DNA of 64,000 nt from Cryoendolithus antarcticus. Its lineage: Eukaryota > Ascomycota > Dothideomycetes > Cladosporiales > Cladosporiaceae. Made by a program: the position numbers and the translations under genes. Below, in pieces: positions 1-6,738 of this stretch. The stretch is from positions 124,001-188,000 of the forward strand of contig NAJO01000057.1 in the NCBI GenBank assembly GCA_002077065.1. The letters are read 5' to 3'. The first letter of the stretch is position 1. The number at the start of each line of letters is the position of its first letter. A model generated the notes under the pieces. The model saw only the letters and a program-made list of their open reading frames with translations, was not told the DNA's origin and did not search any database.

Positions 1-270
1 TGCGACGACTTTGCTCACAGCCGCAAATGGCGTACATCTTTGGAGGGCGTTGAAAGGGTGATGAGGTGATGTGTAATGACTTGGATTTGGTGCTGTATAT
101 AATGACTGATAAACATACACAAAAGCCATTTCCTCATCTGCAGCGCCCGTAGCTCATCGCTCAATACGCGTTGGGCCGTCGAAATGTGGTCATACCTTAC
201 TTCGCTTGCCGTATAAACTTGATCAAATTCATGGACCCCCTGCACTGCAGCAGTGACTCCGCCAGACATT

Positions 271-1385
271 TCAGCTTTCTGCCTTCCTCCCCTTTTGTTT
301 CGGCGGATCATAGCTAAATCTCGGTAGCGGTACAAACAACGGCGTACTCGGTTGCTCTATGTGCGCCGTCGTACCGTGTCTCTGCACCACAGTCGGGGTG
401 GGTTGGACGCTGGGTGCGGGAGTACGGGTTGAGAAGCGGCGGCGAAGATATCTCCATTGCCACCAGCAGTTCTCGCCGATGCGAGGTGCGGCGTGGTTAT
501 TCCTCGCGTCAGCATTGCGGGAGAGGAGAGCGGATACCACAGAGCGGCGACGAAGGCAGCCCCACTGCCACCAGCAGTTCTCGCCGATGCGAGGTGGCTC
601 GTGGTGCCTCTTCGCTTCGGCGTTGCGAGGTGTCATGGTAGAGGTAAGGTAGCGGCGTTTTAGACAGCCCCATTGCCACCAGCAGTCCTCACCATTGCGT
701 GGAGCGTCGTGGTGTTTCTTTGGTGAGCGAGAGAGAAGATTGAGGGTGCGAAACTTCAGACAGCCCCATTGCCACCAACAATGCTCGCCGATACGAGGGG
801 CATCGTGCTGCTTCTTCGCATCACGCCGTGCAAGGTCTTGGGACCTGGCATGGACCATGAGAGCCTGGCAGTACAGGGATTTGATGCGGGCCGTCCACCC
901 TTTCTCGTGAAGGTCCGGACTCGAAGGCATCGAGATCGGGATAGATGAGCCGGTGCACGCATGATCGCTAGAGCCTGTCAGTGAAAGTGGCAATGTCGGA
1001 TGCGAGGGTCGATTGACTTGTAGATCATACACTCCACTTCGTCGCCCATCCTGAGTGATCGAGCTGGTACGACTATCAAGCTCTGCGGCATGCTGAGACA
1101 GTCATCTCTTGCGTTGCCGGAGACAAGAACGCAGTCGCCGTTGAAGTTGGCCTCGTAGCAGATATACACTGGAGGCTGTTGGGAGACCGGATGCCATGTT
1201 GGCGAAAGGTCGGTGCTGGACGGTGAGAGAATCTTGGCATAGTCGGCGGGCCAGAGAGTAATGTTTGTGAAGTCTGGAGGAGGCGCGTATTGGGCAGGTA
1301 GGAGGGAGACTGGTAGTGCGGTGGCCGAGTAAAGCCCGCCTAGGGCAGTAGCAAAGGACAGGGAAGGCTGCCAGAGGAGGTGCAT
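271..1385 (-). CDS. Secreted crystallin-like protein with C-terminal Kex2-type peptide repeats
   Basis: Two exons, 1018..1385 and 271..967, joined over a 50-nt intron (968..1017) with a CACTGAC branch site, give 354 aa. The start is the ATG at 1385; residues 1-23 look like a signal peptide. Residues ~72-156 resemble the small secreted beta/gamma-crystallin-like fungal domain (VYICYEANFNGDC, ECMIYND-ACTGSS, GW-ARIKSLYC), and splicing restores its second half. After it, with no stop, come four units built on CWWQWGCL (residues 186-193, 218-225, 254-261; variant CWWQWRYL at 290-297). Each is bracketed by dibasic RR, KK, KR or RRR sites, and NAEA/NADA dipeptides precede two units. This is the layout of a Kex2-processed multicopy precursor: an alpha-pheromone-like, KEP or RiPP-type peptide. 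Released peptides would be about 18 aa with one possible disulfide. The donor (GTCAAT) is weak; a GTATGA donor 16 nt upstream is an alternative that keeps the frame but removes ECMIY. Function is inferred. Confidence 0.75.
445..780 (-). repeat. Four in-frame tandem repeats encoding CWWQW peptides
   Basis: Cores lie at 757..780, 661..684, 553..576 and 445..468, spaced 96, 108 and 108 nt. On the + strand each reads approximately CATTGCCACCAGCAGTTCTC. The core is much better conserved than the linkers, as expected when the peptide is selected. The last unit has lost the second cysteine. Confidence 0.9.
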
Positions 1386-4009
1386 GGTTCGTAGATACCG
1401 CAAGAATTGCCAGCTCGCCGTTTCTTCGAAGTCGGGGAAATGGGTATGAAGATATCCTTACCAGTCTGCGCTGTCTCTCCTGGCGTGTTGTGTGGTGGTC
1501 CTTGCAAAGGTATGCAGACGAATACCCTTGGGGTACACTTCGCATTACAGAGCGGGTCTGTCACCTCAAACGACCGCAGCTTACCGCGGCCTCGGTCAAG
1601 TGGACTAGGATACCGTGAGGTCTTGTGCGCCATCGATATATAGGTCTAGTATGCTGTCGAGCGCGTTCAACAACGTGTGATCACGACTTTCAACGGATCA
1701 TGCGTCGGAATTTACGGCTGCTGAGACTTGATTGTGAGACTCGAAGCCAGTTGGTGGTAGGACCACGTTAAAGTCCCGGGCGAGTCACATCATCACAGGA
1801 CGGGTGCTGCATTGTGGTGTTTGGACATGATCAGCACGTCACTGTTGCAGACTGGGGGTCCCATGACGCCCTCAGCATCTTACCGCGCGCGAATAGTGTC
1901 ATTCATGTATGCTGGTAGCTCTCCAAGGCCACGGATGTCGTTCCTCAGCAGTCCACGAGGATGGTCCAGATTGCATGTCTCGTTCGATCTTGGGCAGCGG
2001 CAGGATCGTGAGCCATACCAGTCCATTGCATTGTCGTTGACGAGACTCGAGTGTAAGTGCCTGAGTACGATCACGAGGTAGCTACCCGTCCTACTGATGT
2101 ACAACGTGCGACCAGCCGCAGGATACTGTGAAGCACGGACAGGATTCAAGCTGCCGAAGTCGCGCGCTCCCGTGCGGATCATGTCTTGTCACACTCGAAT
2201 TTGATGAAGCCGGACGCTCGGAGTATTATGTGAACGCAAGAATTAAGGATCCAGCGTCTCTTGAAAAGCGTTTGTGACAGGCTCTGCTCGACAGCTGTCA
2301 CCCTACGCTTCGGAGATAGTGCAGGGCCGTTGACTGCTGCCGAAGGTACAAAGGTCCACTCCCACGGTTTCCACCAGACTGCTCAAAAGTCAACACGACT
2401 CGCCGCCGCGGCTCTTCGACCGTCAGCCACTGGTGCGGCGTTTATCAAAATGGACCAGAGACAGGAATAGTTGCTGGAGGGGGATTCATCATGCCTAGAG
2501 TGCTTGAAGAGGCCTGAAGACGCGGCTACATGTCGCACTGTCCACTGGTCCCGCCTCACAGATGCCGCGATGGCACGGCCATGACTGCAGTTGAGAACGA
2601 CAATGATGGCAGCATCGCATGGTCTCGATGCCCAATCGTCGGAGTTGAAAGTCCGCCTGTGGCTAACGTTCAGACTTGAGCCCCCCTAGCACACGCGGCG
2701 CCGTCGACTGGATCTGTCGTGCATACAACCTTACCAGCACTTGACTCCACCTCTCCGTGCGCCTCTTGCACTCTCAAGACCCCGAACGCAGACATCGTTG
2801 CGACATCCTACCGCGCTATCGCCCCCGATGAGAGTGACAAGCCGATCTGAGTCTGGTGTTGCAACGAGGTTGCATTGTAGGATCGCAAGTACGGGCTGCA
2901 CTTTTCGGAAGAAGACACCCGAGCAGCACTACAGCAGTCACCGATGCACAATGTGCTTGCAGAGTTTGCCTCAATATGTGCTCTTCAACAAGCACATGAG
3001 TCATGCGAGATGCGGCCCAATCTTAAGTACGAAGTGGAGGTGATCTGATGTACGATCAAAGCATCTAGACACGCAAGCCACAAATCTGCCGTGCGGCTCG
3101 CCGATATGGTTGCGGGCCTCGCCTTGCAAGCAAAGTTGAGTTGGAGCCAAGTGGGACGGTACCCGGACCTGGGCCCGCTCATGCTCTCGGCCGATTTTCT
3201 GACCTCGTAACGAAGCAGTATTGAACGACTACTGGCATGCGTCGATGCAGGCGCCTGGAAGCAATGCGCAACATCTCGACACATGTCGCTTGCTGACCTG
3301 ATCGCGTGTGCGAACGACGTTCCTGCAGGATGTATGAGACCCCAGATCATCGCAGGGGGTTCCGGAAGACACCTCGTCTGCAGTCTCCCCACTTGCGCCT
3401 CTACTGCCCACGAGGCTGCGGGTCCAGACGGCCGCTTGTCGCGTTCGGAAAATACGCCGTATGCTGGTGTTCTGCGTCGCTTCTGGAAGCGCAAGATCTA
3501 GGCGCGTGCTTTGAGCCGCGATAGGGGAGCGGCAATGAGAGCCCATGCGATGTCGGTATTGGTACATAGGAAGGCTTGCGGAAGGCCCACGTGCGATTTG
3601 CTGCTGGTCCTCGTGATTTTCATTGCTCACATTGCAAACCTCCAGCATCCGACTTCAGAGTAGTTTGCGCGGATCTATTTTCGTCAGATCTTGCGCCCTT
3701 GCCAGGAGCAAGTCCACTGGACGGCCGTCAGACTGTCGACTACCTGTGCATTGTCCTTCTTGTTGCAAATCAGGGTTAGTCAACTACACGAACAGGCATA
3801 CTGGCGTACTTTGTGTCCTGTCGATCTTGTGCAGTTAGGACTGAGGGACTTTCCTTCCATCCACAGGAAAGGGGGTTCGTCAGACAAGAGGTTTCCAACA
3901 TCGATCAATCAGCATCGTAACCACAGCCTGTGTAGTACTTGGTATTGTCATAGTCCGGAGTCGCGCGTGGTTCACGAGCTCGTCCGGTTTGCACGCATTT
4001 GGCAACGCA
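1386..4009. other. Gene-poor interval
   Basis: About 2.6 kb between the peptide-precursor start and the ankyrin gene. Open frames here are short (up to ~170 aa), overlap on opposite strands, lack recognisable motifs and do not splice into a convincing model. It carries the promoters of both flanking genes. I see no transposon ends or RNA gene. Confidence 0.5.
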
Positions 4010-6738
4010 ATGGCGCAACAGGGCCAGAACAAAGCTCTGCTGGAGGTATGCAGTGCATGCATTCAGTCTGGTAACAACTCCGCTGTCAGAATGCTGGAGG
4101 TGAGCCTCGACGGGATATTTATCGTTCTCTCACAGATCGGCTGACCGACAGCTTAGTACATGACGGAAACGCGGACGCCCCGTGCAGGCTTCAGTGCGCT
4201 TGCCAATGAACATCTAGAAGCCAGTAGGCCTCTCTTTGCGGCTATGACTGGTCTCGCGGAGCTTCAGCGCGAGCGTGGTCAGCTCACGGCAGACACGTAT
4301 AACAATCTTCGCGACGTGCTTCGTCAGTACTGGACTAATCTGACCGTCCTCAACAAGATGGTCAACAAGCTCCTGGACGACGAGCACATCATCAGCAGAT
4401 TAACCCGAGGTATCAGGCTTATGTTCAATGAGGGCGAACTCGACAAGATGAAAGCGTCCTTGGCACAGTGCAGGATCGCCGCCCAGGCTATCCCTGAGGT
4501 GTTCGGCCGGCTTCTCCGTGAAATCCACGTCGACACTGGTCTTTCCATGGGCTACACTGCGCTTGCATCGGTGACCGGAAGTGCGACCCTACCAGAGGCG
4601 TTGCTCGTAAAGCTCCCGAGACGATTCCAGAGACTCCACTACCACTTCGCAGGCTGTTCAATGACTCGACGCCTATGCTATCCGGCACCATGAAAGACCT
4701 TCGCCACGATCTTCCCAGTCCGCCTTGGTCCGATGGCTCAGACCATTCGTATGAGCATTTAGGTTCAGACCACACTGTAAGCAGACAGCTACACCATCGT
4801 GGCGGGCCCAGCATGGCAGCGACCGGAAAGAGACTTACAGAATTGACACCACCATCGTCTATAGTCCACCCAGAAGAGCAAACGGGCCATCGTGCTTTGT
4901 ATGAGATGCCCACGCACCCAGTGCGGATTCCGGTGGATCTGACGACGGTTTCTCGATGGAAACCAAAGCATACTCAGGGTGCCAACAACTCAGCCGCAAG
5001 CAATGCACTCTATGTGGCTCTCCAGGAGAAGAATCACAAGATGATCGAGCACCTCCTCGACAGTGGAGTACCTGCAAACCATCCTTCGGGTAATAGTCTA
5101 ATAAGGATAGCGATCAACAACCACGACCTTGATAGCGTCCGGCTCCTACTTGTCTTCGGCGCAGATGTCAATGCCTCTGACCCGGACGATATCACCCCAC
5201 TGTATGCCGCGACTGAGCGCGCTTTCTACGAAGCTGCACAGTTGCTACTTACATACGGCGCAGATCCCAATGTGGCCGCAGGACCCACCCAGGAGAGCCC
5301 CTTTGCCTTGACACTACATCACGGTCGGGCACATTTCGCACTGCTGTATCTCAAGTACGGCGCAGATCCAGATGACGAGCTTGAAAGTGGCGATACACCC
5401 TTCATAAAAGCAATTAACCGGACTGCTCCCTGTCACTTGGTGGATCTCATGCTGCTATACGAAGCCTCAGTCAACAAGAAGAACAGTCGAGGAGAGACGC
5501 CACTCTTCGTAGCAATAAACGCAGATCGACCTGACATCGTGGGCGCGCTGCTCGAGCATGGCGCACTCCCCAATCTACCGGGCCCCAAACACATGCTATG
5601 GCCCTCTGTACATCACCCCATGATACTCGAGCTTCTACTCGACAAAGGTGCCGATCTGCGCAAAGCACCTGGTGTGCTCGAGCTCGCCACATCTATCAAT
5701 TCCATAGAGGCAGTCAAGATCTTGCTGAAGCACGGCGTTGATGTCAATGCGAAGAAAGATGGCATCTTTACGCCATTGTGTACTGCGATCCGCGACGATC
5801 GGGAAAAGCTTATCGACCTTCTGCTGGCTTCAGGCGCAGATCCAAATCTTCCAGCATCCGAGTACCCGGCCTTCAAATGCGTAACGCATCATCGCGCTCA
5901 CCTTCTTCCGAAGCTTCTCGCCGCGGGCGCCGATGCCGATGAGCCGGCAGGCATTGTCGAGACTGCAGTGGCGCACAACAACCAGGATGCTTTGATTCTA
6001 CTGCTCAACGTAGGGCTGGATCCAGATGCTCGTGATGCAGCCGGTCATACTGCTCTCACGACTGCTATCACAAAGAGTGATCTCGGCTACATCGAGATTC
6101 TTCTCGCGCGCAAAGCCAATGCCGGCGTCCGCGGCCATGACTGGCCCGTGAACATGGCGGTCAAGAATCCTGAGATCCTCGCAAAGCTTCTGCCACATCT
6201 AGCGACTGCGGCAATACCCAAGGGTGCACTTGAGCTCGCAGTGCAAGCTAATCAGCTTGAGAGCGTCAAGCTGCTCCTCGCGGCGGGTGTTGCGGTCGAG
6301 GATAAGAATGGAGGTGTGTTCAGTCCGCTAACAATAGTGATCCGAGAGGACCGGAAGGAGATCTTCCGCTATCTACTTGACGAAGCTGGCGCGGATCCGA
6401 ACAAGCCTGGTGAGCATCTACCCATCATCAAGGCCATTCGCCGCTACAGACAGGATGATCTGTCTTATATTGAGCATTTGCTGCACAAAGGTGCCGATAT
6501 GAACCTGATGTACCGCGGCTGGAATGCTGTGCTCCAAGCACTCGACAAGGGCGACGACAAGACCCTACAGTTGCTTGCGGAGATGGGTATCCCAGATATA
6601 GCAGTCAAAGACGACGACGGACACAGTGTACTAGAGATCATGAGGGCGAGAGGTATGAAGGAAGAGGAGCAGATTCTTACGCACGGTCCTAAGGTGAAGA
6701 AAACGGGGCGGAAGCCGACAACAGACAGGGCACGATAA
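4010..6738 (+). CDS. Large ankyrin-repeat protein with helical N-terminal domain
   Basis: Three exons give 873 aa. Exon 1 is 4010..4099 (MAQQGQNKALLEV...); intron 1 is 4100..4156 (GTGAGC, GCTGAC branch, TAG). Exon 2 is read to about 4570-4580. A 50-nt intron must follow, because the frame changes: either 4571..4620 or 4581..4630, both giving the same protein length. Residues ~30-165 are helical and leucine-rich, a style common as the N-terminal domain of fungal STAND/NLR-like proteins, but no NACHT or NB-ARC motif is seen. From about residue 290 to the end run many ankyrin units (LLLVFGADVNASDPDDITPLYAA, LLLTYGADPNV, LLKHGVDVNAKKDGIFTPLC), followed by a basic tail (KKTGRKPTTDRAR). It probably mediates protein-protein contacts; partner unknown. 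Confidence 0.8.

What the first reader, a model, noticed from the sequence alone, without database searches (positions are those of the whole stretch)
271..1385. Crystallin-like secreted domain fused to a four-copy Kex2 peptide precursor
Splicing a 50-nt intron completes a signal peptide plus crystallin-like domain and runs directly, without a stop, into four Trp-rich peptide units (core CWWQWGCL) bracketed by dibasic sites, two of them preceded by NAEA/NADA. Multicopy Kex2 precursors are known (alpha-factor, KEPs, dikaritin RiPPs), but I know of none carrying a crystallin-like domain. The peptides could be a divergent pheromone, a signalling peptide, an antimicrobial or a modified RiPP core. 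Cys-x5-Cys spacing and Trp content recall, but do not match, the WC...CW pattern of filamentous alpha-pheromones.
Basis: partly seen in the sequence, partly recalled or inferred. Interest (0 to 1): 0.88.

Follow-up and report, generated by a model that had tools for sequence, protein, structure and literature searches.

The report
Fungal peptide precursor with crystallin-like head
A rock-dwelling Antarctic fungus carries, in two diverged copies, a gene for a probably secreted protein whose front half resembles a crystallin domain and whose back half repeats a tryptophan-rich peptide that may be cut out as an extracellular signal; no relative of the peptide turned up outside this genome.

Summary
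On the minus strand of Cryoendolithus antarcticus, exons 1385-1018 and 967-271 encode 354 aa, identical to NCBI model B0A48_17242, an ab initio model and so not transcript proof. A diverged homeolog, B0A48_17968, keeps the intron, the frame and three of four units. dN/dS is 0.20 overall and 0.077 for units 1-3. The head has no Pfam match; its best solved-structure match is spherulin 3A, a beta-gamma crystallin, at E 0.02 across the exon junction. The repeats matched only the homeolog; the head has one outside relative, truncated. Corrections: only 2 of 4 units have dibasic sites on both sides; NAEA/NADA precede the cut and so are not Ste13 sites; no UstYa match lies on either contig. Best reading: a Kex2-processed repeat precursor releasing Trp-rich, probably disulfide-closed signal peptides. 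A diverged alpha-pheromone is possible: RIGExCW is shared with Trichoderma, two Ste2 matches exist, and an incomplete search found no canonical array. Function is untested.

The parts
1018..1385 (-). Exon 1: start codon, probable signal peptide (about residues 1-23), linker, and first part of the crystallin-like domain
   Evidence: exon 1 codes 122.67 codons. Signal peptide judged by eye and hydropathy only
968..1017 (-). 50-nt intron, GTCAAT...CACTGACAGGCTCTAG
   Evidence: same position and length in the homeolog with donor GTAAAT; used in NCBI model B0A48_17242, which is ab initio
271..967 (-). Exon 2: end of the crystallin-like domain, four peptide units, C-terminal tail, stop codon
   Evidence: open frame 271-1101; spliced protein equals P0001
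868..1172 (-). Crystallin-like domain, residues 72-156 (interrupted by the intron)
   Evidence: profile A2 to spherulin 3A 1hdf/1ag4, E 0.02, positions 49-133 (conversion); Pfam none
757..810 (-). Unit 1 QHDAPRIGEHCWWQWGCL, flanked by KK and KFR
661..714 (-). Unit 2 HHDAPRNGEDCWWQWGCL, flanked by KK and KRR
553..606 (-). Unit 3 HHEPPRIGENCWWQWGCL, flanked by KR and RRR
445..498 (-). Unit 4 NHAAPRIGENCWWQWRYL, lacks the second Cys, no dibasic site before it, RRR after; no counterpart in the homeolog
271..444 (-). RRR site and C-terminal tail to the stop, no repeat; conserved in the homeolog (residues 301-354 dN/dS 0.205)

Best explanation
The gene encodes a secreted precursor of the Kex2-processed repeat protein (KEP) kind. 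A signal peptide sends the protein into the secretory pathway (inferred). A small domain with beta-gamma-crystallin-like sequence then folds; it may help the repeat tail fold and traffic, or be released as a stable protein of its own (inferred). Kex2 cuts at KK, KR and RRR sites, a Kex1-type carboxypeptidase trims the basic residues, and peptides of about 18 aa, ...PRIGExCWWQWGCL, are secreted (processing inferred; sites shown). The two Cys of units 1-3 probably close a small aromatic ring, CWWQWGC (inferred). The most likely role is an extracellular peptide signal of the fungus itself, read by a G-protein-coupled receptor (inferred). A diverged alpha-pheromone read by Ste2 is the single most specific candidate, but it is not shown.
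For: Gene model in NCBI and homeolog with the same intron, frame and repeats. Purifying selection: dN/dS 0.198 whole gene, 0.077 units 1-3, 0.055 cores, 0.166 crystallin-like part. Copy number of the unit differs between homeologs, 4 against 3. A basic pair lies in each gap between neighbouring units, 3 of 3 in the window gene and 2 of 2 in the homeolog; KR, RR and to a lesser extent KK are the accepted Kex2 sites (passage of PMC6339444). Two P_proprotein (Kex2-type) matches in the genome. The N-terminal part has a relative outside the species (72% identity over 57% of the query). Profile match to spherulin 3A across the exon junction.
Against: No transcript, peptide or processing data. Only 2 of 4 units have dibasic sites on both sides. 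Enrichment of dibasic pairs is modest: window 10 against a shuffle mean of 5.6, reached in 117 of 5000; homeolog 7 against 4.7, reached in 671 of 5000. The extra constraint on the units over the rest of the gene is only borderline (p 0.06). Domain identity is borderline, the same profile search also lists intersectin 2 (E 0.16) and an aldolase (E 0.6), and the fold model was useless. No relative carrying the repeats was found outside this genome. No predictor of signal peptides was run.
Confidence: 0.62

Rival explanations
1. Special case of the best explanation: it is the alpha-type mating pheromone precursor of this lineage. The peptide keeps the second half of the WCxxGxxCW consensus (RIGExCW), has lost the first Cys and has gained a new one further on, and it acts on Ste2.
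For: RIGENCW against WCYRIGEPCW of Trichoderma reesei PPG1, a 286-aa precursor with four copies (PMC3068285 passages): 6 ungapped identities, reached in 4 of 5000 shuffles of the unit (the homeolog's unit 2 was used). Two Ste2 matches in the genome, one with a full-length open frame. Five pattern searches for canonical pheromone repeats gave no array. Dothideomycete alpha-pheromones are already diverse (PMC6339444 section 8).
Against: The match was noticed first and tested after, and the other 8 of 9 peptides compared (pheromones and one pheromone-like KEP) gave nothing. Consensus not met; window unit 2 has RNGEDCW. 18 aa against the 9-13 aa ligands of PMC6265332 (passage). No Ste13 dipeptide directly after the cut. 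The pattern searches cover only some pheromone forms. No precursor with a crystallin-like domain was met in the passages read.
Confidence: 0.25
2. It is a dikaritin-type RiPP precursor whose Trp/Cys cores are cyclised by UstYa-like oxidases.
For: Multicopy Kex2 precursor layout; di-histidine or W occurs in KEP types that have UstYa (DUF3328) neighbours (PMC7329392 passages); UstYa matches exist in the genome.
Against: The 9 UstYa matches lie on C91, C66, C65, C59, C128 and C75, none on C103 or C127. Of 37 open frames of 200 codons or more between window -30 kb and +40 kb, 9 were scanned and gave ordinary families. No Tyr in units 1-3.
Confidence: 0.05
3. The units are antimicrobial or competitor-directed peptides, with the crystallin-like domain as a chaperone or second effector.
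For: Trp-rich loop next to Arg runs (sequence); crystallin-fold secreted antifungal proteins are known (recalled, from no call).
Against: After trimming of the basic residues three of the four peptides computed are near neutral (pI about 6; unit 4 with an extra N has pI 8.2); no Pfam or NCBIfam match.
Confidence: 0.1
4. Annotation artefact: a truncated crystallin-like gene and a separate downstream frame joined by a gene finder.
For: All splice evidence is computational; the donor GTCAAT is a poor one (general knowledge).
Against: The match to spherulin 3A continues through the junction. Without the splice the window frame stops 14 codons on and the homeolog frame at once, and by eye the second frame has no start followed by a signal sequence. 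The frame is conserved on both sides of the junction.
Confidence: 0.04

Closest known systems
Kex2-processed repeat proteins (KEPs; PMC6339444, PMC7329392)
   Same: Probable signal peptide, near-identical short units separated by basic pairs, no relative outside the lineage (2560 of 7878 KEPs were stand-alone)
   Different: A conserved, intron-containing, crystallin-like domain stands before the repeats; 'crystallin' occurs 0 times in the main text of either survey
Filamentous alpha-pheromone precursors (PPG1 of Trichoderma reesei, PMC3068285)
   Same: Multicopy, Kex2 sites, RIGExCW shared with WCYRIGEPCW, two Cys and Trp residues
   Different: Cys-x5-Cys instead of Cys-x6-Cys, leading WC absent, longer unit, no Ste13 dipeptide directly after the cut, extra domain
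Spherulin 3A, beta-gamma crystallin (PDB 1hdf, 1ag4)
   Same: Colinear weak match over residues 14-96 of the 102-residue chain
   Different: E only 0.02; here the domain has Cys residues and a repeat tail
Dikaritin RiPP precursors (ustiloxin, phomopsin, asperipin)
   Same: Kex2 repeat precursor layout
   Different: No UstYa match on either contig, no Tyr in units 1-3

Membership tests
Kex2-processed repeat protein | N-terminal signal peptide | tested here: inconclusive
   Hydrophobic N-terminus by hydropathy only; similar start in P0002 and P0003; no SignalP run
Kex2-processed repeat protein | At least three near-identical internal repeats | tested here: met
   4 units in the window, 3 in the homeolog
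Kex2-processed repeat protein | Kex2 sites (KR, RR, lesser KK) between repeats | tested here: met
   A basic pair in 3 of 3 gaps (homeolog 2 of 2), but only 2 of 4 units (homeolog 2 of 3) have one on both sides
Kex2-processed repeat protein | Cleavage and secretion of the units | not testable with these tools
   Needs peptidomics
Filamentous alpha-pheromone | Core consensus WCxxGxxCW (as quoted in PMC3068285) | tested here: not met
   Only the GxxCW half is present
Filamentous alpha-pheromone | XA or XP dipeptide directly after the Kex2 site | tested here: not met
   QH, HH, HH follow the site in units 1-3; DA, DA, EP come one dipeptide later; NAEA precedes a site
Filamentous alpha-pheromone | Receptor Ste2 in the genome | tested here: met
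   C58 full-length frame; C139 in two stretches, one stop inside the match
Filamentous alpha-pheromone | Activates Ste2 / needed for mating | not testable with these tools
   Bench test needed
Beta-gamma crystallin | Match to a curated family model | tested here: not met
   Pfam none for P0001, P0002 or the two domains alone; PF00030 none in the whole genome
Beta-gamma crystallin | Homology to a solved member over the whole domain | tested here: inconclusive
   Spherulin 3A best of 177,635 with profile A2, E 0.02; single sequences E 0.75 (second-best entry) and 0.68 (only entry)
Beta-gamma crystallin | Greek-key fold | tested here: inconclusive
   Model from 2 sequences, mean pLDDT 30.8; not used for fold search
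Dikaritin RiPP | UstYa-type gene in the neighbourhood | tested here: not met
   9 matches, none on C103 or C127; 9 of 37 nearby frames scanned, ordinary

The most novel reading that the evidence does not exclude
An alpha-pheromone that has rewired its disulfide: the ring has moved from the N-terminal to the C-terminal side of the conserved GExCW turn, and its precursor has captured a crystallin-like domain as its pro-region, in a group of rock fungi described as known only from sterile mycelium. A mating signal would have changed shape while its receptor gene persists in two copies.
Probability: 0.22. Interest if true: 0.82.

Novelty: new variant of a known kind. Interest (0 to 1): 0.6.

Why it matters
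Fungal repeat precursors are normally described as a signal peptide plus repeats. A conserved, separately folding domain in front of the repeats would be a new layout and raises the question of what it does for folding, storage or targeting. The peptide itself is an orphan with a defined, synthesisable sequence, two Ste2 matches sit in the same genome, and the group is described as known only from sterile mycelium (PMC10739867 passages). So the question whether these fungi still carry a working mating signal becomes directly testable with one synthetic peptide.

Tried and rejected
Other splice pairs: one search listed five GT/AG pairs giving more than 250 aa in the ranges tried; only 1017/968 agrees with the homeolog intron and the NCBI model. 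Structure: AlphaFold2 of P0001 with P0002 gave mean pLDDT 30.8, so no fold search was made. Families: Pfam, NCBIfam and PF00030 in the genome (63) gave nothing; Rfam on 1-4000 gave nothing. Further copies in the genome: weak matches on C60 (E 2.02, four stops inside) and C13 (E 0.59, one stop inside) were taken as chance (16, 17). Canonical alpha-pheromone: WCxxxG[QE]xC gave 28 single matches against 2 for the reversed control (short contexts of all 28 printed, none a repeat precursor); G[QE]xCWKR gave 0 (30); CxxxG[QE]xCKR gave 3 (31; contexts in 34, none); CxxPGQxC gave 15 against 4 for the control (35; 3 of 15 lie at places already seen in 27 or 34, the other 12 were not opened); PGxxCKR gave 36 against 19 for the control (68; 4 of 36 opened in 72 and one more seen in 34, none). 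In no list do two matches lie within 2 kb. Other pheromone forms are not excluded. Papers: searches. One search (WWQWG) returned one unrelated paper. One search (crystallin, fungal, Kex2, secreted) listed 12 papers, none opened. One search (pheromone precursor, crystallin, fungus) listed 9, one opened (its hits are 'crystalline'). Saying that the fusion was not met in print rests and on the word counts only. Papers seen as passages: PMC6339444 (section 8 read), PMC7329392 (section 6 part 1 read), PMC3068285, PMC10569646, PMC6265332, PMC6476273, PMC4227064, PMC4683645, PMC10739867; PMC5502844 read, part 1 of 2.

Full report
What is there. The window is G000:C103:124001-188000 of a 47-Mb assembly. 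Its gene at 271-1385 is identical to hypothetical protein B0A48_17242 of Cryoendolithus antarcticus, an Antarctic rock fungus formerly called Rachicladosporium antarcticum, of a group described as known only from sterile mycelium (passages of PMC10739867; lineage). On the minus strand, exon 1 (1385-1018) and exon 2 (967-271) are joined over a 50-nt intron. The NCBI genome was annotated with Augustus, GeneMark and EVM and no transcripts are mentioned (PMC5502844, part 1 of 2 read), so its agreement is not proof of splicing.

The homeolog. An exact DNA pattern for the core found five sites in the genome, three in the window gene and two on contig C127. The C127 gene gives B0A48_17968 (P0002). 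Its intron has the same place and length, with donor GTAAAT, and its three units and tail are colinear. C103 and C127 match in order, with gaps, over about 55 kb in pieces of 70-90% identity. Ste2 and the proprotein-convertase domain match at two places each, and the UstYa matches fall into apparent pairs on different contigs. So the two genes look like products of a duplication, hybrid origin or diverged diploidy of a whole segment, not of a local duplication.

Selection. With a 36-codon gap placed by best nucleotide identity, dN/dS (Nei-Gojobori) is 0.198 for the gene, 0.344 for residues 1-71, 0.166 for 72-157, 0.077 for units 1-3, 0.055 for their cores, 0.219 for the spacers and 0.205 for the tail. 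The contrast of synonymous and non-synonymous change is strong (p about 2e-18); the extra constraint on the units over the rest of the gene is borderline (p 0.06). The intron differs at 10 of 50 sites. Within the window gene, units 1-3 differ from one another by 3-4 residues with 5-7 silent codon changes. Both head and tail are therefore read in one conserved frame.

The head. Pfam gives nothing, and PF00030 has no match in the genome. A profile of the two homeologs and the Oleoguttula fragment (A2) puts spherulin 3A, a beta-gamma crystallin, first among 177,635 PDB sequences at E 0.02, colinear over residues 72-156; intersectin 2 (E 0.16) and an aldolase (E 0.6) follow. The homeolog alone returns only spherulin 3A up to E 10 (E 0.68); the window copy alone returns it second (E 0.75) behind an unrelated ribosomal protein (E 0.17). 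The exon junction falls inside this match, which argues that the splice rebuilds one domain. The evidence is suggestive, not proof; the AlphaFold2 model was useless.

The tail. Units are QHDAPRIGEHCWWQWGCL, HHDAPRNGEDCWWQWGCL, HHEPPRIGENCWWQWGCL and NHAAPRIGENCWWQWRYL. Basic pairs stand in all 3 gaps between units, but on both sides of units 2 and 3 only: unit 1 lacks one after it, and unit 4 lacks one before it and the second Cys. Kex2 sites in fungi are KR or RR, to a lesser extent KK, and Ste13 dipeptides follow the site (passages of PMC6339444). Here NAEA and NADA do not follow a site. Searches of 5.8 billion proteins, limited to candidates of similar length that share short words, gave the gene itself and its homeolog for the whole protein (E up to 0.1, 3287 candidates) and the homeolog alone for the repeats (E up to 10, 2046 candidates). 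For the head they gave one hit, P0003 of Oleoguttula sp. CCFEE 5521 (72% identity over 57% of the query; a 95-aa partial protein on a 1364-nt contig; 166 candidates). Whether repeats follow in that fungus cannot be seen. A relative, Rachicladosporium sp. CCFEE 5018, was annotated in 2017 but gave no hit; whether its proteins are in the searched set was not checked.

What it does. The layout, selection and differing unit number fit a Kex2-processed repeat precursor. UstYa matches are on other contigs, and the 9 of 37 nearby frames that were scanned encode a LepA-type GTPase, DUF1365, ankyrin, catalase, DUF7726, CID, ABC and COQ7 proteins and a transcription factor, so a RiPP cluster is unlikely. 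The peptide shares RIGExCW with the T. reesei alpha-pheromone WCYRIGEPCW (PMC3068285 passages). Six identities were reached in 4 of 5000 shuffles, while the other 8 of 9 peptides compared gave nothing; the likeness was noticed first and tested after, and with the homeolog's unit 2. Two Ste2 matches are present, and five pattern searches found no canonical pheromone array. A diverged pheromone is therefore possible, but two defining features (consensus, Ste13 position) were tested and not met, so I do not file it there.

Novelty. KEPs are known and often orphan (7878 KEPs, 2560 stand-alone; PMC7329392 section 6 part 1). The word crystallin does not occur in the main text of either KEP survey, and no such fusion shows in the listings. 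I rate it a new variant of a known kind.

Noticed in passing
window 1-28989 and G000:C127:52001-109486: The left part of the window has a colinear second copy in pieces of 70-90% nucleotide identity (about 55 kb of C103 in all); Ste2, P_proprotein and apparently UstYa genes also come in pairs, so the 47-Mb genome looks duplicated, hybrid or diverged diploid.
   Followed up: partly
G000:C139:420002-420917: The second Ste2 match is split in two stretches with one TGA inside; it may hold an intron or be damaged, while the C58 copy is open.
   Followed up: no
window 4522-6735: A 738-codon open frame made largely of ankyrin repeats (Ank_2, E 1.7e-49).
   Followed up: no
P0003, Oleoguttula sp. CCFEE 5521: A 95-aa N-terminal relative at 72% identity in a fungus filed under another order, Mycosphaerellales; either the domain is old, was transferred, or the strain is misassigned.
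   Followed up: partly
L004 1028-1395: The homeolog has extra Cys at residues 45, 49, 65 and 150 and lacks C76, so its head may pair its cysteines differently.
   Followed up: no
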